Assembly: GCF_028692895.1 (NCBI RefSeq)
Contig: NZ_JAQUWN010000036.1
Coordinates: 1-34,061 of the forward strand
DNA from: Pseudodesulfovibrio sp.
GTDB taxonomy: Bacteria; Desulfobacterota; Desulfovibrionia; Desulfovibrionales; Desulfovibrionaceae
Length of the DNA stretch: 34,061 nucleotides
Direction of reading: 5' to 3'
In this document: one piece after another, positions 8,586-15,335 of the stretch
Layout: the number at the start of each line of letters is the position of its first letter
Numbering within the stretch: the stretch's first letter is position 1
The notes under the pieces: generated by a model
Told to the model about the DNA's origin: nothing
The model's database searches: none
Seen by the model: the letters and a program-made list of their open reading frames with translations, nothing else
Program-made: the position numbers and the translations under genes

Positions 8586-10700
8586 TTATTCGGAGCCCGG
8601 CCGGTCGATGGGCCGGACGTCGTCGTCCTGGGTGTATTCCGCCCCGGCGTCCGCGTCGTAGCAGGTCAGGCCGCAGCGCAGGCAGCGGCTCGCCTCCTTG
8701 CGGGCGACGTCGTATGAGATGGAGCAGGCCACCTCCTCCTTGAAGGATATCCGGCGCTCCTCCAGGGGCGTGAGCGGCACCTGCACGCGCGGGATGGTGT
8801 AGGTCACATGCATGTTCTTGAGGATGGTCTCCGGGATGACCTGGACCTGCTGGTTGTCGGGTTCGGGCACTGCGCCCCGGGTGACGTGGAAGTGGATGGC
8901 GCGGGCCGCCCGGCGGCCGTCGGCCACCGCCTGGATCAGGATGTTCCGGCCGGTGTGGACCTCGCCGCCCACGAACACGTTGGGAATGTCGGTCTGGAGC
9001 GTGGTCGGGTTGGCGCTGACGCCGCCGGTCTTCTTGTCCCTCTTGAACAGCGGGTTGCCGTCCGCGTCCGTGAACAGGCTGTGGTCCACCACGCGGTCCG
9101 AGGCGGCCACGACCAGGTCGGCCTCGATGAAGGCCTTGGTCCCGGACACGGGCTTGGGCTCGCCGGCGGCCTTTCCCGGATCGTCGTAGGCCAGGTCGCA
9201 GTATGTCACGCCGCTCACGGCCCCGTTCTCCACGTGGAGGGCCAGGGGCGCGGTCAGGAAACGCAGGTCGGCCCCGATCTCCAGGGCGCGTTCGACCTCG
9301 TCCTTGTTGGCGGTCATCTTGCGCTGGATGGCCGGGACCAGGACCGTGACCAAGGCATTTTGGCGCCTGGCGCTGCGGGCCACGTCGATGGCGGTGTTGC
9401 TGCCGCCCACCACGACCACGCGGACGCCGCTCATGTCGGGACCCTCGCGGCCGAAGCGCTCCAGGAAGGAGATGGCGTCCACCACGCCCTCGGCGTCGTC
9501 GTTCTCGATGCCCAGCGGGGGCACCTTCCACGCGCCGGTGGCGATGAGCACGGCCTCGAAACCTTCGCGCTCCAGGTCCTTGAGGGTCACGTCGCGGCCG
9601 AAGGCCACGCCGGTGCGGGTCTCGACGCCGAGGTTCAGAATGGTTTGGACCTCCCAGTCCACCACCTTCTTGGGCAGGCGGTATTCCGGGATGACGCCGC
9701 GCATCATGCCGCCGATGTGCTCGCGCCGCTCGAAGATGGTGGGCTCGTGCCCGACGCGGCGAAGGAAGTAGGCGCAGGACAGGCCGGTGGGTCCGCCGCC
9801 GATGATGGCGACCTTGTGGCCGCTCGGCGGGTTGCAGTAGAGCGGCACGCGGATGCCGGACTGCATTTCCCAGTCCGCCACGAACCGTTGCAGGGTGTGG
9901 ATGGCCACGCCCTCGTCAACGATCTTGCGGCGGCAGATGTTTTCGCACGGGGCCGGGCAGATGCGGCCGGCGATGAGCGGCAGGGGGTTGTGCTCCTTGA
10001 TGGTCAGGAGCGCGCCGCGCAGGTCCTTCTGCTTGATCTGCTGGATGTAGCGGCGGACGTTGATCTGGGCCGGGCACTTCTGCATGCAGGGCGCGAGGCA
10101 GTCGTCGGTCTGGTTCAGGTGGAGCAGGACGCTGGTCACGCTGGAGATGCGGATGGCCCCGGTGGGGCAGGCCTCGGCGCACTTGCCGCAGGACCGGCAG
10201 GCGTTCCAGTCCACCACGGGCACCCCGGCCTCGGAGAGCCGGAGGGCGTTGAATGGGCAGACCTTGACGCAGGTGCCGAGCCCGATGCAGCCGATGCCGC
10301 ATGACTTCTCGCCGCCGTAGAGCAGGGCCTCGGCCCGGCAGTCCTCCACGCCCTTGTAGTCGAAGATCAGGTTGGCGCGGTCGCCGCCGCTACAGATGTT
10401 GGTGGCCACCCGGGGCTCCTTGAAGTGGACCTCGGCCCCCATGATGGCGGCGATGCGCTGGGAGGTCTCGATGTTGCCCACGATGCAAACCTCGGCCGGG
10501 GCCGTGCCGTCCACCACGGCCGCCGCGGCGGCCGAGCAGCCGGGATAGCCGCACCCGCCGCAGTTGGCGCCGGGCAGGCAGGCCTCGACGCGCGCCACGC
10601 GGGGGTCCTCCGCGACGTGGAGAAGCCGGGAGGCCACGGCCAGGATGGCGGCCGCCGTCAGTCCCAGCAGGAACAGTACCAATATGGAAGAAGCTACCAT
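8586..10700 (-). CDS. rnfB: RnfB fused to a GltD/NfnB-like FAD-NAD(P)H oxidoreductase
   Basis: A 704-residue protein, far longer than usual RnfB (roughly 180-330). Residues 1-25 form a membrane anchor; 41-55 hold the RnfB Fe-S motif (CLPGANCGGCGYPGC); 134-180 hold two ferredoxin clusters (CIGLGTCVKVCP, CRSCGKCAEACP). From about 201 the protein continues as a GltD/NfnB-type module: Cys pairs CLAPCMQKCP and CPAPCENIC, FAD motif GGGPTGL (301-307), NAD(P)H motif VGGSNTAIDVA (431-441), and a terminal RCLRCGLTC. RnfB normally takes electrons from ferredoxin on the cytoplasmic side; the added module should bind FAD and a pyridine nucleotide. Last gene of the rnf operon, 24 bp after rnfA. AAGGA lies 8 nt before ATG 10700. 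Confidence 0.93.
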   Translation of the reverse strand: MVASSILVLFLLGLTAAAILAVASRLLHVAEDPRVARVEACLPGANCGGCGYPGCSAAAAAVVDGTAPAEVCIVGNIETSQRIAAIMGAEVHFKEPRVATNICSGGDRANLIFDYKGVEDCRAEALLYGGEKSCGIGCIGLGTCVKVCPFNALRLSEAGVPVVDWNACRSCGKCAEACPTGAIRISSVTSVLLHLNQTDDCLAPCMQKCPAQINVRRYIQQIKQKDLRGALLTIKEHNPLPLIAGRICPAPCENICRRKIVDEGVAIHTLQRFVADWEMQSGIRVPLYCNPPSGHKVAIIGGGPTGLSCAYFLRRVGHEPTIFERREHIGGMMRGVIPEYRLPKKVVDWEVQTILNLGVETRTGVAFGRDVTLKDLEREGFEAVLIATGAWKVPPLGIENDDAEGVVDAISFLERFGREGPDMSGVRVVVVGGSNTAIDVARSARRQNALVTVLVPAIQRKMTANKDEVERALEIGADLRFLTAPLALHVENGAVSGVTYCDLAYDDPGKAAGEPKPVSGTKAFIEADLVVAASDRVVDHSLFTDADGNPLFKRDKKTGGVSANPTTLQTDIPNVFVGGEVHTGRNILIQAVADGRRAARAIHFHVTRGAVPEPDNQQVQVIPETILKNMHVTYTIPRVQVPLTPLEERRISFKEEVACSISYDVARKEASRCLRCGLTCYDADAGAEYTQDDDVRPIDRPGSE

Positions 10701-10724
10701 GTTCGCATCCTTCGTCTTGTTCGG

Positions 10725-11300
10725 TTATGCGGCCATGCCCTGGAAGGCCAGGAAGACCAGGGACATGACGCCCGCGGTGATCAGCGCCACCGGGATGCCC
10801 CGGAAGACCGCCGGCACCGGCGAGATGTCCAGCCGCTCGCGGATCGAGGAGATGATGACCAGGGCGATGAGGAAGCCCAGGCCGGTCGCCAGCGAGAAGA
10901 GCAGGGCCTTGAAGAACGGGTATTCGCCGCGCTGGACCATGATGGCCACGCCCATGACCGCGCAGTTGGTGGTGATGAGCGGCAGGAACAACCCCAGGGA
11001 GGCGTGCAGGGGCGGAATGACCTTCTTGAGGAAGAGCTCCACGAACTGGACCAGCGAGGCGATGACCAGAATGAAGACGATGGTCTGCAGGTAGCCGATG
11101 CCGTAGGGCGTCAGCACGTAGTGCTGCAGGGGCCAGGTGAAGGCCACGGCCATGAGCATGACGAAGATGACCGCCGCGCCCATGCCGATGGCCACGTCCG
11201 TGGACTTGGACGTGCCCATGAACGGGCAGGTGCCCAGGTATTGGACCAGGACGATGTTGTTGATGAATATCGCCGAGATGAACAGCATCAGGTATTCCAT
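10725..11300 (-). CDS. rnfA: Rnf electron transport complex subunit A
   Basis: A 191-residue membrane protein with six hydrophobic helices, normal length for RnfA. It carries the conserved LGTCPFMG (Cys25) and a second Cys in TTNCAVMG; with the matching pair in RnfE these are known to hold an intramembrane [2Fe-2S] cluster that passes electrons across the membrane. Starts 1 bp after the rnfE stop, so expression is coupled. Confidence 0.95.
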   Translation of the reverse strand: MEYLMLFISAIFINNIVLVQYLGTCPFMGTSKSTDVAIGMGAAVIFVMLMAVAFTWPLQHYVLTPYGIGYLQTIVFILVIASLVQFVELFLKKVIPPLHASLGLFLPLITTNCAVMGVAIMVQRGEYPFFKALLFSLATGLGFLIALVIISSIRERLDISPVPAVFRGIPVALITAGVMSLVFLAFQGMAA

Positions 11301-11301
11301 G

Positions 11302-11991
11302 CTAGTTCTCCTTCCTGGCCGTGGCGCACAGGTTGCAGGCCGCGCAGGAGGCGCAGGCCGCGTTCTTGGGCTCCGTGGGAATCTCGCCCTTCCTGCGGCT
11401 CATGTGCCGGTTGAAGGCGTTCATGCCGGCCAGTATCAGCCCCAGGCAGATGAACGCGCCGGGGGCCATGACCATCAAATGGGCGGGGCGGAAGGCCTCC
11501 CACGGCACCGGAATGCCGAAAACGGTGCCGTTGCCCAGCGTTTCGCGCAGTGCGCCCAGGAACGTGAGCGACATGGTGAACCCGAGTCCCATGCCGAGGC
11601 CGTCGGCGATGGACGGGATGACGCCGTTCCTGGAGGCGAAGGCCTCCGCCCTGCCCAGGATGATGCAGTTGACCACGATCAGCGGGACGAAGATGCCGAG
11701 CCGCTGGTAGAGGGAATAGGTATATGCCTGCATGAGCAGCTCCACGGCGACCACGAGGGAGGCCGCGATGACGATGAAGCAGGCGATGCGGACCTTGCCG
11801 GGAATGATCTTGCGCAAGGCCGAGATGATGGCGTTGGACAGGGTCAGGACGAAGAGGACCGCCGCGCCCATGCCCAGGCCGTTCTCCGCCGTGGAGGTGA
11901 CGGCCAGGGTGGGGCACAGGCCGAGCACCACGCGAAACGGCGGCAGCTCGTCCCAGAGGCCCTTGGTGAATTCCTTTATGACGGAAGGCAT
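11302..11991 (-). CDS. rnfE: Rnf electron transport complex subunit E, Cys-rich tail
   Basis: A 229-residue paralogue of RnfA with six membrane helices. GLCPTLAVT places Cys26 at the position of RnfA Cys25, and VNCIILGRAEAF carries the second cluster Cys. The C-terminal tail adds four extra Cys (CASCAACNLC) on the cytoplasmic side, an extension that could bind metal. Lies 10 bp after rnfG. Confidence 0.94.
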   Translation of the reverse strand: MPSVIKEFTKGLWDELPPFRVVLGLCPTLAVTSTAENGLGMGAAVLFVLTLSNAIISALRKIIPGKVRIACFIVIAASLVVAVELLMQAYTYSLYQRLGIFVPLIVVNCIILGRAEAFASRNGVIPSIADGLGMGLGFTMSLTFLGALRETLGNGTVFGIPVPWEAFRPAHLMVMAPGAFICLGLILAGMNAFNRHMSRRKGEIPTEPKNAACASCAACNLCATARKEN

Positions 11992-12001
11992 GCGTTGCTC
12001 C

Positions 12002-12568
12002 TTAGGATGCCCACAGGGTGGCGATTTGCGGCTTGATGCGCCGGTAGGTCTCCAGGGCCTTGCGCACGGCGTCCACCGCGCCCGTGGACGAGTAGGTCGC
12101 TCCGGACACGGAGTCGATGTCGCCCCCGCGCGAGGAGAGGTCCAGGCCGTCCAGGGAATGGCCGCGGAACTGCTTGAGGAAGCCCTGCTGCATGATCCTG
12201 GTGCCCACGCCCGGCGTTTCGGTCTGGGTGGTCACGCCGATGCCGATGAGCTTGTCTTCGTTCACGTCGAAGCCGACGATGACGCCGATGTCGCCGGAAT
12301 AACCCGCCGCAAAGGCCTCCAGGGCCACGCCCGAGAGCTTGCCGTCCTTGCGGGCCGGGAAGAGGGTGACGTCCCCGACCTTCTTGCGGTCGGCGATGGG
12401 GTCGTTGTCGCATCCCTTGAGCACGGCCATGAGGGTCGGGCCCTGGACGTTGAGCAGGACCTGTTGCTCGATGCGGGCCTTGGTGGCCTGCTTGAGGTTG
12501 ACCAGCAGGGTGCCGGACGCGGCGCAGATGAGCGAGAGGACGACGATCATGTTGATTATTTCACGCAT
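12002..12568 (-). CDS. rnfG: Rnf electron transport complex subunit G (FMN-binding)
   Basis: A 188-residue protein: an N-terminal membrane anchor, then a periplasmic FMN-binding domain. DSVSGATYSS contains the SGAT flavinylation motif whose Thr is covalently linked to FMN by ApbE. No apbE gene is present in this window, so the flavin transferase must lie elsewhere. Starts 3 bp after rnfD; GGAG lies upstream within rnfD. Confidence 0.95.
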   Translation of the reverse strand: MREIINMIVVLSLICAASGTLLVNLKQATKARIEQQVLLNVQGPTLMAVLKGCDNDPIADRKKVGDVTLFPARKDGKLSGVALEAFAAGYSGDIGVIVGFDVNEDKLIGIGVTTQTETPGVGTRIMQQGFLKQFRGHSLDGLDLSSRGGDIDSVSGATYSSTGAVDAVRKALETYRRIKPQIATLWAS

Positions 12569-12571
12569 GGC

Positions 12572-13543
12572 TTATCTGACTCCGAAGAACTTGGGGCGCA
12601 GGCGGTCCAGCAGCGGGCTGAGCAGGCTCGCGACCATGATGGCGAAGGGGACGCCGTCGGGATACACGCCGTAGACGCGGATGACGATGACCATGGTCCC
12701 GGCGAGCAGGCCGAAGACGGTCTGCGGCAGTCTGCCCACCGGGCTGGACGCGGTGTCGGTGGCCAGGAAGAAGGCGCCGAATACAGTGCTGCCAGCCAGC
12801 AGGTGGAAGATCGGGTCGGCGTAGGCCGTGGGATCGATGAACCAGAACAGGGCGGCCGCGCCCGCCACCCCGGCCAGGAAGGACACGGGGATGAACAGTC
12901 GGGTCCAGCGGGAGGCGATCAGGTAGACGCCGCCCGCGGCCAGCGCCAGGACCTGGGACGAGCCCAGGCCGCCGATCTGGTGGCCGGTCAGCAGGTCCAT
13001 GTACTCGAATTGCGAAAGGCTCTGGACCCCGAAGTACTTGAGCTGGTCCACGGGGCTGTTGGCCATGAAGTGCGCCAGGTTGAGGTCGATGTCCATGGCG
13101 TCGGGCCAGGAGAACCGGCATACGGCCCAGGCCACCAGCGGGGCGCAGACCGGGTTGCAGCCGAATCCGCCGAACACGGTGCGGCCCAGGGCGATGGTGA
13201 CCACGCCGCCGATGGCGGCCAGCCACCACGGCGCGGTGGCCGGGAGGAGGAAGGCGAACAGCACGCCCGCGTAGAAGGCGGAGAAGTTGTCCACGTTCAC
13301 GTCCCGGTGCTGGAGGCGGAGGCAGACCACCTCGGCGGCGACCGCCGCGGTCCCGGCCATGCCGATGACCGCTGCGGCTTGCACGCCGTATATCGCCACC
13401 GCCATGATGGCGGCGGGGACGAGCGCCAGCAGGTGGGCCCGCATCATGCCCTGGATGGTGCGCCCGCTGCGCCAGTGCGGCGGGGGCGACACCACCAGCC
13501 GGACCGGGTTGTCGGACATTGCCTTTATGATGGGATGGATCAT
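12572..13543 (-). CDS. rnfD: Rnf electron transport complex subunit D
   Basis: A 323-residue membrane protein with about nine helices and the RnfD/NqrB pattern (FGGFGCNPVCAP, LLAGSTVFGAFFLATD, GVYPDGVPFA). At the region where RnfD normally has a covalent FMN site (SGAT or SQAT followed by PLD), the sequence reads ANSPVDQLK (161-169): Ser163 takes the place of the flavinylated Thr and the preceding residues are not conserved. Covalent FMN is therefore uncertain here. ATG 13543 is preceded by two AAAGGA sequences; ATG 13519 is an alternative. Confidence 0.94.
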   Translation of the reverse strand: MIHPIIKAMSDNPVRLVVSPPPHWRSGRTIQGMMRAHLLALVPAAIMAVAIYGVQAAAVIGMAGTAAVAAEVVCLRLQHRDVNVDNFSAFYAGVLFAFLLPATAPWWLAAIGGVVTIALGRTVFGGFGCNPVCAPLVAWAVCRFSWPDAMDIDLNLAHFMANSPVDQLKYFGVQSLSQFEYMDLLTGHQIGGLGSSQVLALAAGGVYLIASRWTRLFIPVSFLAGVAGAAALFWFIDPTAYADPIFHLLAGSTVFGAFFLATDTASSPVGRLPQTVFGLLAGTMVIVIRVYGVYPDGVPFAIMVASLLSPLLDRLRPKFFGVR

Positions 13544-13589
13544 TTCCTTTGTCGTCCTTTGTCGTCTGAGTCGGTGAATCCCCGGGGCG

Positions 13590-14735
13590 TTATGCCTGCG
13601 TCGCCTCGGCCTTGGTCCGGAGCTGGGTCTTGGCGAAGCGTATGTACTGGAGCAGCGGCCGCCTGGCGAAGCAGTTGAACGCGCACAGCCCGCACTCGAA
13701 GCAACTGTTCAGGCCGTATTTTTCGGCCTGGTCGAAGAGCTCGTACTCGACGCAACGGCTGATGAGATGCGGCTGGACCCTGGCCGGGCACTGGAGGACG
13801 CACTCGCCGCAGTTGATGCAGGCGGCGTCCTGCACGGCGGGGATTGCCTTGGACGAGGTCACGAACAGGCCGTAGTCTCCCTTCTTGACACCGTCGTACA
13901 GGCTGTAGATGGCCTCGCCCCTGAACGGCCCGCCCAGTACCACGGTGTCGCCCGACTCGACCTTGATGTTCAGGACATTCAGGAGGTGGTTGATCGTGGT
14001 GCCGATGGGAACGCGGTAGTTGCGCCCGGAGATGGTCATGATGGTGTCGGTGACGGGCAGGCCGGTCAGGGCCACCCGGCCGAGGGCGTAGAGGGCCATG
14101 ACGTCGATCACTCGGGTGTGCTCGGGAAACTCCTTGCCGGTGACGGCGCGGACGACCAGGGGGTCGAGGGAGTACGGGTAGCGCGCCCTGAGGCCCACGG
14201 TCTCCGCGCCGGGCAGGGTGATGGTTTCGCCTTGGGACACGGCCAGGAAAGTGCGGGCCGGGGAGATGAGCTCGCGGGCCAGGCAGAGCCCCTCATGCAG
14301 TTCTTCCCGCCCGTCTCGCAGGATTTGCTGAGCCACGGAGACGCCGGGCTCGGGGTTCAGTCCATTGATGACCAGGGTCTCGGCCTTGCCCGAGAGCTGG
14401 GAGACGTCCACGCCCAGGCCGCGCAGGGTGCGGAGAAGTTCCGCGCCCGCGTTCATGGACCGGACGTCCACGGGCTCGACCGTGTCCTCCTCGCCGGAGC
14501 ACTTTACGGTCAGGCTGTGATAGTTGACGGCCGTGACCTTGCCGCAGGACGCCACATGGTGCGCCCCCAGCATGGAGGACGGGTGCTCGGCGACGATGTC
14601 GCCCTTTGTCAGCACGCCGCCCTTCTTGGCCTTGAGCACGAGGTTGCGTACCTGGACGTTCAGCTCCTGCGGCGGCTTGATGTCGGTGATGCCGTTATCC
14701 AGTTCGCAGTCGAGCGAATAGCGAATCTTGAACAT
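13590..14735 (-). CDS. rnfC: Rnf electron transport complex subunit C, degenerate nucleotide site
   Basis: A 381-residue peripheral subunit, shorter than the roughly 435 or more of typical RnfC. The N-terminal barrel domain, a VVLGGPFRG motif and two C-terminal Fe-S motifs (CINCGECVLQCP, CFECGLCAFNC) are present. The region that normally reads GLGGAGFPT, then INGAECEPY, which binds FMN and NADH, here reads GLGVDVSQL, then INGLNPEPG (residues 106-131), so the Gly-rich loop is lost. ATG 14735 begins MFKIRYSL, 4 bp after the cytochrome stop. Loss of NADH oxidation by this subunit is inference. Confidence 0.93.
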   Translation of the reverse strand: MFKIRYSLDCELDNGITDIKPPQELNVQVRNLVLKAKKGGVLTKGDIVAEHPSSMLGAHHVASCGKVTAVNYHSLTVKCSGEEDTVEPVDVRSMNAGAELLRTLRGLGVDVSQLSGKAETLVINGLNPEPGVSVAQQILRDGREELHEGLCLARELISPARTFLAVSQGETITLPGAETVGLRARYPYSLDPLVVRAVTGKEFPEHTRVIDVMALYALGRVALTGLPVTDTIMTISGRNYRVPIGTTINHLLNVLNIKVESGDTVVLGGPFRGEAIYSLYDGVKKGDYGLFVTSSKAIPAVQDAACINCGECVLQCPARVQPHLISRCVEYELFDQAEKYGLNSCFECGLCAFNCFARRPLLQYIRFAKTQLRTKAEATQA

Positions 14736-14739
14736 GCCC

Positions 14740-15216
14740 TTACCTCTCGTGACACTGGTAGCAGGCGTCCGCGCCGAACGGGCCGCCGCCTTGTTCGTGA
14801 CATCCCTGGCACATCGTGTGGAACGCGTCGCCCCGGGTCGGGATGGACTCGATGTCCGGCCGCTCGCCCTCCGCCAGGGGACCGGTGGGCGCCTCGTCGT
14901 GGCAGCGCAGGCAGGCCGCCTTGTCCGGGAAGGCCTTCTGATGGTTGAGGCGGAATTCATCGTTGAACTCCGGCGGATGGCAGGCGCCGCAGGGCAGGGA
15001 TGTCCCGCCCTCCAGGCCGTAGTGGTGGCAGTCGGCGCAGTCCGTGTGGTACTCCTCGGCATGGGTCCTGTGGGAAAACAGGACGCGCCCGCCGGTGTTG
15101 TCCAGCACGACGCGCGCGGGGACCTTTTCCTTCTCGGGCGGGATAGCGTACCCGATGACGGCGACCAGAAACGACAGCCCGACGATCAGCGAAATGAGGA
15201 AATATCGGCGTTGCAA
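14740..15216 (-). CDS. Membrane-anchored pentahaem cytochrome c of the Rnf operon
   Basis: A 158-residue periplasmic cytochrome with an N-terminal signal anchor (RRYFLISLIVG...). Five CXXCH motifs are visible in order: CADCH, CGACH, CLRCH, CQGCH, CYQCH, plus several distal His, with the FSHRTHAEEYH start typical of cytochrome c3/c7-like proteins. It heads the rnf operon, 4 bp before rnfC, and probably exchanges electrons between periplasmic carriers and RnfG/RnfD. TTG 15216 is chosen because GAGG lies about 8-9 nt upstream and it starts at the anchor; ATG 15279 in the same frame has AAAGGA touching the start codon and would add 21 residues. Confidence 0.88.
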   Translation of the reverse strand: MQRRYFLISLIVGLSFLVAVIGYAIPPEKEKVPARVVLDNTGGRVLFSHRTHAEEYHTDCADCHHYGLEGGTSLPCGACHPPEFNDEFRLNHQKAFPDKAACLRCHDEAPTGPLAEGERPDIESIPTRGDAFHTMCQGCHEQGGGPFGADACYQCHER

Positions 15217-15335
15217 CTGGTCATCCCTCGTTCTGGAAGTTGATTGCGACAGGCAAAACACGGGGTTCCATTGGCTCATTCCTTTAAAATCAGTCTATTA
15301 CTCTCTAGATTGAACGATCAATCAAATCCGGGGTT

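What the first reader, a model, noticed from the sequence alone, without database searches (positions are those of the whole stretch)
8586..14735. Nucleotide site apparently moved from RnfC to an RnfB-NfnB-like fusion
RnfC (13590-14735) reads GLGVDVSQL and INGLNPEPG where the NADH/FMN loop GLGGAGFPT and INGAECEPY are expected, while RnfB carries an added GltD/NfnB-type module with complete FAD (GGGPTGL) and NAD(P)H (VGGSNTAIDVA) motifs. Together these suggest an Rnf that reaches the nucleotide through RnfB, perhaps with NADPH instead of NADH, next to the ferredoxin clusters. The motif loss and fusion are seen; the functional swap is inference.
Basis: partly seen in the sequence, partly recalled or inferred. 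Interest (0 to 1): 0.78.

Follow-up and report, generated by a model that had tools for sequence, protein, structure and literature searches.

The report
Rnf pump without its NADH site
A sulfate-reducing bacterium carries an ion pump of the Rnf family whose usual NADH-binding part is gone and whose ferredoxin-receiving end has been swapped for a flavoprotein module; a published variant, but this copy has also lost the marks of nucleotide binding in the new module, so what feeds the pump is open.

Summary
RnfC lacks the FMN/NADH elements but keeps both [4Fe-4S] clusters; RnfB carries an NfnB/StnC-like module where its distal ferredoxin domain should be. Among 146 rnf loci of the window's phylum, 0 of 36 canonical RnfC but 63 of 110 loop-less RnfC had a fused RnfB in the operon. 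Loop loss is wider than fusion and goes with a multihaem cytochrome c nearby (88 of 110 against 0 of 36). The pairing is in print: the Desulfobacula toluolica-type or 'Rnf2' complex (PMC5109826, PMC11887813). It belongs to a subgroup (16 of 77 fused RnfB) without the second glycine of GxGxxA, the arginine pair, Lys271 and the GD aspartate, with a less conserved NAD half; FAD glycines, N5-arginine and cluster cysteines stay. Two sister operons in the same genome have the intact site. Best reading: the nucleotide site did move to RnfB in the family, but this copy probably binds no NAD(P)H at either end and runs as a ferredoxin-fed, cytochrome-linked pump. Function is inferred.

The parts
14740..15279 (-). 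Pentahaem c-type cytochrome, 179 aa, first gene of the operon (five CxxCH, N-terminal hydrophobic stretch)
   Evidence: Cytochrom_CIII 38.4 bits, cut-off 22.9; five CxxCH
13590..14735 (-). RnfC, 381 aa, loop-less type: RnfC fold without the FMN/NADH elements, both [4Fe-4S] clusters kept
14385..14417 (-). RnfC residues 107-117, where GxGGAxFPTxVK should be; loop deleted
   Evidence: alignments
14343..14366 (-). RnfC residues 124-131, NGLNPEPG in place of NGAECEPY
13671..13820 (-). RnfC residues 306-355, ligands of two [4Fe-4S] clusters
   Evidence: eight cysteines in 145 of 146 RnfC, the exception being a short frame, L176
12572..13543 (-). RnfD
   Evidence: TIGR01946 220 bits, over cut-off
12002..12568 (-). 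RnfG with SGAT flavinylation motif
   Evidence: NF045876 RnfG_DVU2794 272 bits, over cut-off; SGAT
11302..11991 (-). RnfE with a cysteine-rich C-terminal tail
   Evidence: TIGR01948 247 bits; tail
10725..11300 (-). RnfA with both cluster cysteines
   Evidence: TIGR01943 245 bits; Cys25 and Cys113 conserved in 140 of 140 RnfA
8586..10700 (-). RnfB fusion, 704 aa
   Evidence: model pLDDT 85.7, best PDB matches NfnABC, StnABC and NfnI
10140..10700 (-). RnfB residues 1-187: N-terminal helix, PF04060 FeS domain and first ferredoxin domain
8610..10127 (-). RnfB residues 192-697: NfnB/StnC-like module (Fer4_20 clusters, FAD half, NAD half, C-terminal CxxCxxxC), where unfused RnfB have a further ferredoxin domain
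9084..9431 (-). RnfB residues 424-539: NAD(P)-binding half with broken signature (Ser434 for Gly, Pro-Ala for RR at 456-457, SDR for IGQ at 534-536)

Best explanation
An Rnf pump of the Desulfobacula toluolica or 'Rnf2' type. RnfC can hardly hold FMN or NADH any more, so electrons arriving over RnfD cannot be handed to NAD+ there. RnfB has exchanged its distal ferredoxin domain for an NfnB/StnC-derived flavoprotein head. In sister copies that head should oxidise NADPH and feed electrons through FAD and clusters into RnfB, RnfA/E and RnfG. In this copy the NAD(P)H half has lost its dinucleotide signature while the FAD glycines and cluster cysteines are kept, so the pump most likely uses no pyridine nucleotide: a one-electron protein donor (ferredoxin is likeliest) enters at the clusters of the head or of RnfB, electrons cross by RnfA/E to RnfG with ion transport, and leave to the pentahaem cytochrome c of the operon and/or over RnfD and the RnfC clusters to an unknown cytoplasmic partner; it may run in reverse. 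Shown: motif loss, domain swap, conservation, co-occurrence. Inferred: donor, acceptors, direction, ion.
Against: No biochemistry on any such complex was found in the calls made. The subgroup is conserved, not decayed: the third residue of IGQ is Arg in 16 of 16 (DR in 14), GE in 16, and the first Gly and the Ala of GxGxxA stay, which also fits a changed ligand. Residue 271 is His in 9 and Glu in 4 of 16, which could still bind the cluster (Glu does so in NfnB); only the window and two others have Gln or Leu. L157 keeps one arginine (RH) and L167 has KH. The FAD half is less conserved too (0.66 against 0.77 at matched identity). dhcA was not important for fitness in D. alaskensis in nearly all conditions (PMC4215793, passages). 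[ST]GA[ST] was found in only 80 of 109 loop-less RnfG (32 of 36 canonical). RnfC clusters kept without a known acceptor are unexplained.
Confidence: 0.42

Rival explanations
1. One reading: the nucleotide site moved; NAD(P)H is oxidised at the RnfB module of this very complex, which works as an NAD(P)H-driven pump, much as Na+-NQR gained NqrF while NqrA lost its cofactors.
For: Fusion and RnfC loss co-occur (63 of 63 fused, 0 of 36 canonical). The module keeps the FAD glycines and the N5 arginine in 16 of 16 window-type copies, and His or Glu at 271 in 13 of 16. Sister copies have the intact signature with the StnC-type lysine, and StnC passes electrons linearly from NADPH over FAD to clusters (PMC10482914, passages). 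The NQR parallel is in PMC11889175 and PMC4014512, passages.
Against: In this copy and its subgroup the GxGxxA glycine and the RR pair are gone and the NAD half is less conserved. Loop-less RnfC occurs with unfused RnfB in 31 loci.
Confidence: 0.24
2. The window-type module has switched to NADH or another dinucleotide-like ligand in a remodelled pocket.
For: Substituted residues are conserved in their own way: Arg at the third residue of IGQ in 16 of 16, GE in 16 of 16; the NAD half is predicted to fold with block pLDDT of 84 or more.
Against: The two positions of the arginine pair are variable in the subgroup (entropy 2.06 and 1.97 bits, 89th and 85th percentile of module sites), with no conserved acid of the kind expected for NADH (recalled rule).
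Confidence: 0.15
3. Cytochrome-linked Rnf as in Methanosarcina acetivorans: ferredoxin to multihaem cytochrome c, with RnfC and the RnfB head only structural.
For: Multihaem cytochrome gene near 88 of 110 loop-less against 0 of 36 canonical loci, 60 of 60 in the window's family. M. acetivorans Rnf has such a subunit (PMC12174285, passages). 'Ferredoxin:cyt c3 oxidoreductase' is one published guess for D. vulgaris (PMC10920352, passages).
Against: All eight RnfC cluster cysteines are conserved, unlike NqrA, so RnfC is probably redox-active; dhcA mutants of D. alaskensis had no clear phenotype in nearly all conditions.
Confidence: 0.13
4. Ordinary ferredoxin:NAD+ Rnf with diverged RnfC loops that still bind FMN.
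For: Fold kept; N, E and P of NGxxPEP and GGPxRG are largely conserved at the old pocket.
Against: GGxxFP, ECE, ExNK and PQGxEK are lost together in 110 loci while their named letters stand in 36 of 36 canonical RnfC.
Confidence: 0.05

Closest known systems
Desulfobacula toluolica-type Rnf, 'Rnf2' of Desulfobacteraceae (PMC5109826, PMC11887813)
   Same: RnfB of about 700 aa with an added nucleotide-type module; RnfC without the NADH domain; conserved membrane core
   Different: This copy has lost the NAD(P)H signature reported for the large RnfB, and lies in Desulfovibrionaceae, to which PMC11887813 assigns Rnf1; it has a pentahaem cytochrome gene and a Cys-tailed RnfE
Canonical Rnf (Acetobacterium woodii 9eri, Clostridium tetanomorphum 7zc6, Azotobacter vinelandii 8ahx)
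   Same: Six homologous subunits, RnfC fold and its two [4Fe-4S] clusters
   Different: No FMN/NADH elements in RnfC; distal RnfB ferredoxin domain replaced
Na+-NQR
   Same: The RnfC homologue lost its nucleotide site and the donor subunit has a flavoprotein module
   Different: Module of another family (NfnB/StnC, not NqrF); RnfC keeps its clusters while NqrA lost them
StnC and NfnB NADPH modules (8oh5, 9bov, 9n5u, 5jca, 4ylf)
   Same: Fold, FAD glycines, N5 arginine, cluster cysteines
   Different: Fused behind RnfB; GxGxxA and RR broken and Gln at the proximal Lys or Glu ligand in this copy
Methanosarcina acetivorans Rnf with MmcA
   Same: Multihaem cytochrome c tied to Rnf; electrons expected to go to methanophenazine or outside acceptors
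   Different: Its sequences were not compared here; no RnfB fusion known there (recalled)

Membership tests
Rnf complex (homology) | RnfCDGEAB set | tested here: met
   RnfA, B, D, E and G each pass at least one NCBIfam cut-off; RnfC hits TIGR01945 below its cut-off but has the RnfC fold
Canonical ferredoxin:NAD+ Rnf | RnfC FMN/NADH elements GGxxFP, NGxECEP, ExNK, PQGxEK | tested here: not met
Canonical ferredoxin:NAD+ Rnf | RnfB with a further ferredoxin domain after the first | tested here: not met
   replaced by the module from about residue 190 on
Canonical ferredoxin:NAD+ Rnf | ferredoxin-dependent NAD+ reduction | not testable with these tools
   needs enzyme assays
D. toluolica-type Rnf ('Rnf2') | RnfB of about 700 aa fused to a nucleotide-type module | tested here: met
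   704 aa, residues 192-697
D. toluolica-type Rnf ('Rnf2') | RnfC without the NADH domain | tested here: met
D. toluolica-type Rnf ('Rnf2') | NAD-binding sites in RnfB | tested here: not met
   by motif: GxGxxA and RR broken in this copy; met in sister copies L012 and L013; binding itself not testable
NfnB/StnC module | FAD GxGxxG, N5 arginine, cluster cysteines | tested here: met
   16 of 16 window-type copies; R341 aligns with StnC R239 and NfnI R201
NfnB/StnC module | proximal cluster ligand Lys (StnC) or Glu (NfnB) | tested here: not met
   Gln271 in the window
Na+-NQR | RnfC homologue without Fe-S clusters; NqrF-type donor | tested here: not met
   eight RnfC cysteines kept; module is NfnB/StnC-like
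Cytochrome-linked Rnf | multihaem cytochrome c gene in the operon | tested here: met
   five CxxCH at 14740-15279
Cytochrome-linked Rnf | electron transfer between Rnf and the cytochrome | not testable with these tools
   needs biochemistry

The most novel reading that the evidence does not exclude
A redox-driven ion pump of the Rnf family that uses no pyridine nucleotide at either end, in which an NfnB-derived FAD with its N5-arginine kept serves as a splitting or gating flavin between two one-electron carriers in the cytoplasm, while the membrane part exports to or imports from a periplasmic multihaem cytochrome. It arose after a first swap of the nucleotide site from RnfC to RnfB, by a second loss in this subgroup, and the signature seems to have been lost at least once more elsewhere.
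Probability: 0.15. Interest if true: 0.8.

Novelty: new variant of a known kind. Interest (0 to 1): 0.52.

Why it matters
Two of the papers whose passages were read (PMC4215793, PMC4841214) build the energy budget of a Desulfovibrio on Rnf as ferredoxin:NAD+ oxidoreductase; a third leaves the acceptor open (PMC10920352). In the window's family 60 of 62 rnf loci examined lack the RnfC elements that do this, so such budgets rest on an untested reaction. The one genome with three operons, two with an intact NADPH-type site and one without, makes the question directly testable by comparison. It also looks like a second case beside Na+-NQR of an Rnf core given a new electron input module.

Tried and rejected
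Rejected: that the module is simply 'added' to RnfB. That operons without rnfB have lost RnfB altogether: of 7 stretches that run at least 5 kb past rnfA without a full rnfB (L031, L033, L110, L127, L129, L134, L142), 6 lie in genomes that encode a fused RnfB elsewhere (G203 none). Four more genomes asked had stretches cut by contig ends; 3 of these have a fused RnfB on another contig, G001 none. That the loop loss follows from the fusion: the core tree needs 3 changes for either trait and gives no direction. That a bifurcating NfnB-type site is likely in intact copies: they carry Lys271 as in non-bifurcating StnC in 49 of 49. A pseudogene operon: frames are open and the subgroup spans several genus codes.

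Led nowhere: finding the D. alaskensis genome by published primers (no match) or by an Oleidesulfovibrio RnfC (nothing at 1e-150 in 288 genomes), so the form of its RnfB stays unknown; that RnfC (P0112) is loop-less. Searches for prior work on the NAD(P)H-less subgroup gave none in the listings and passages seen. The original D. toluolica paper was not read; it is known here only through PMC5109826.

Limits: 160 stretches were picked by hand from the places listed (one search's list was itself cut), plus own-genome and named loci; not all listed places were fetched. Of 167 RnfD rows, one duplicate locus and 19 rows without a qualifying RnfC were dropped, leaving 147 rows, 146 loci. Fisher tests ignore relatedness. 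'Loop-less' was set by the GGxFP motif, 'intact' by GxGxxA plus RR, and the window-type group was drawn by eye from the motif table; the core tree then held its 13 sampled members as one clade (SH-aLRT 100). Trees are quick searches without bootstrap. The models used 68 and 63 of the 120 homologues listed by each. No complex was modelled.

Full report
What is there. On the minus strand the window holds an operon of a pentahaem cytochrome c, RnfC, D, G, E, A and a 704-aa RnfB. RnfB residues 1-187 are RnfB; about 192-697 match NfnABC, StnABC and NfnI chains by sequence and by predicted fold. Downstream on the same strand lies a frame that reads like a DEAD-box helicase (by eye). The genome (3.69 Mb, 132 contigs) has three rnf operons, on C85 (window), C129 and C99, all with fused RnfB and loop-less RnfC; these were the only three RnfC matches at E 0.001. 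It also has a separate NfnAB-like pair (L014). Names of close relatives point to Pseudodesulfovibrio.

Co-occurrence. RnfD was sought in 297 genomes of the phylum (111 with a match) and 199 of the order (122 with a match); 160 stretches were fetched by choice. Of 146 loci, 63 of 110 loop-less and 0 of 36 canonical have a fused RnfB in the operon (Fisher p 2.5e-11, relatedness ignored). A frame with four or more CxxCH lies on the same strand within about 4.5 kb of RnfC in 88 of 110 loop-less and 0 of 36 canonical loci. Of the loop-less, 31 have an unfused RnfB of over 150 aa and 16 none or a fragment nearby; many of these 16 stretches are cut, and of the 7 that run 5 kb past rnfA, 6 lie in genomes with a fused RnfB elsewhere. 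In the window's family 60 of 62 loci are loop-less, 45 of them fused, and 60 of 60 have the multihaem frame.

Trees. A tree of the membrane core puts 88 loop-less rows of 127 in one clade without canonical rows (SH-aLRT 100); four other loop-less rows (L093, L111, L131, L097) lie among the canonical ones; 3 changes for the loop, 3 for the fusion. The fused modules form a clade of 77 with one long-branched stranger among 97 rows (SH-aLRT 96, 20 non-fused rows in the set), which fits a single origin of the fusion.

Domain swap. The 16 unfused RnfB read have a second ferredoxin domain after the first; fused RnfB have the module there. In A. woodii ferredoxin is thought to dock at the distal clusters B1-B2 of RnfB (PMC11889175). 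So the module stands where ferredoxin would be received. This is my inference from the sequences, and it parallels the recruitment of NqrF in Na+-NQR (PMC4014512, passages).

The NAD(P)H site. 77 fused RnfB were compared. 49 are intact, set by GxGxxA and RR; all 49 also have Lys271, IGQ, GD, the N5 arginine and the FAD glycines. 16 are window-type: the second Gly of GxGxxA is Thr or Ser in 16; RR is absent in 16 (RH in L157, KH in L167); IGQ becomes xxR in 16 and xDR in 14; GD becomes GE in 16; Lys271 is His in 9, Glu in 4, Gln in 2 (the window and L057) and Leu in 1. FAD glycines, N5 arginine and the cluster cysteines stay in 16. 12 are degenerate in other ways and keep Lys271 and the N5 arginine in 12. 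StnC K170 and R239 and NfnI R201 fall on residues 271, 341 and 341 when the alignments are counted with the numbers of PMC10482914. There K170A and K170C lost most activity, and the arginine of StnC does not bond N5; its FAD does not bifurcate. That two arginines hold the extra phosphate of NADP+ in NfnB is from PMC6405883; that they are those of YRR is my reading, with recall of the adrenodoxin reductase family.

Relaxed constraint. At matched RnfB-domain identity of 0.7-0.8 the NAD half is 0.77 identical among intact and 0.58 among window-type pairs; the FAD half 0.77 against 0.66; the Fer4_20 cluster part 0.83 against 0.79. The NAD half is the less conserved part in 120 of 120 window-type, 66 of 66 degenerate and 159 of 1176 intact pairs. 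So the cluster conduit is held, the FAD half somewhat less, the dinucleotide half least. The change between intact and not intact needs 2 to 4 steps on three trees.

Mechanism. Shown: an Rnf core with the RnfA/E cysteines and the RnfG motif in the window (across loci the RnfG motif was found in 80 of 109 loop-less and 32 of 36 canonical). Inferred for the family: NADPH, FAD, clusters, RnfB, RnfA/E, RnfG, then cytochrome c and/or RnfD and RnfC clusters. Inferred for this copy: the same path without nucleotide, ferredoxin being the likeliest donor. Genome G385, whose contig length equals that given for Desulfovibrio ferrophilus, has only this type among its strong RnfC matches, so it can serve as the sole Rnf. 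Against a simple cytochrome outlet stand the dhcA fitness data in D. alaskensis (PMC4215793).

Prior work. PMC5109826 (passages) describes, citing the D. toluolica genome, a large RnfB of about 700 aa with NAD-binding sites and an RnfC without the NADH domain, needing another partner. PMC11887813 (passages) calls it Rnf2 and puts Rnf1 in Desulfovibrionaceae, which does not fit 60 of 62 loci here. [quoted passage not shown] in the fused loci read here that place holds the fused RnfB, which NCBI often names the same way. The NAD(P)H-less subgroup was not met in the listings and passages.

Verdict. A real, coherent and widespread variant, known in outline from the D. toluolica work; the part that looks new is that this copy seems to have lost the transferred site as well.

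Noticed in passing
window 11302-11991 (-), C-terminus of RnfE: RnfE ends in a cysteine-rich tail (CxxCxxCxxC here). A CxxCx(1-3)C tail is present in 62 of 106 loop-less and 0 of 36 canonical RnfE; it may hold a further cluster or touch RnfC.
   Followed up: partly
L012 (C129) and L013 (C99), same genome: Two further rnf operons with fused RnfB, intact NADPH signature and cytochrome genes with ten or more CxxCH as counted; with the window this makes three.
   Followed up: yes
L031, L033, L110, L127, L134, L142: rnfCDGEA stretches without a full rnfB in the 5 kb past rnfA, in genomes that encode a fused RnfB elsewhere; G034, G224 and G265 have two fused RnfB each, one intact and one degenerate.
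   Followed up: partly
L093, L111, L131: Three loop-less RnfC inside the canonical core clade, with unfused RnfB and no multihaem frame nearby: apparently a separate loss of the RnfC site.
   Followed up: no
L167 (G385): Genome with contig length equal to that listed for Desulfovibrio ferrophilus; its only strong RnfC match is of the window type.
   Followed up: partly
L133, L146, L118, L103 and other degenerate fused RnfB: 12 fused RnfB with a poorly kept NAD half (mean pairwise identity 0.30) but the N5 arginine kept in 12 and the conserved cluster cysteines in the 7 tabulated.
   Followed up: partly
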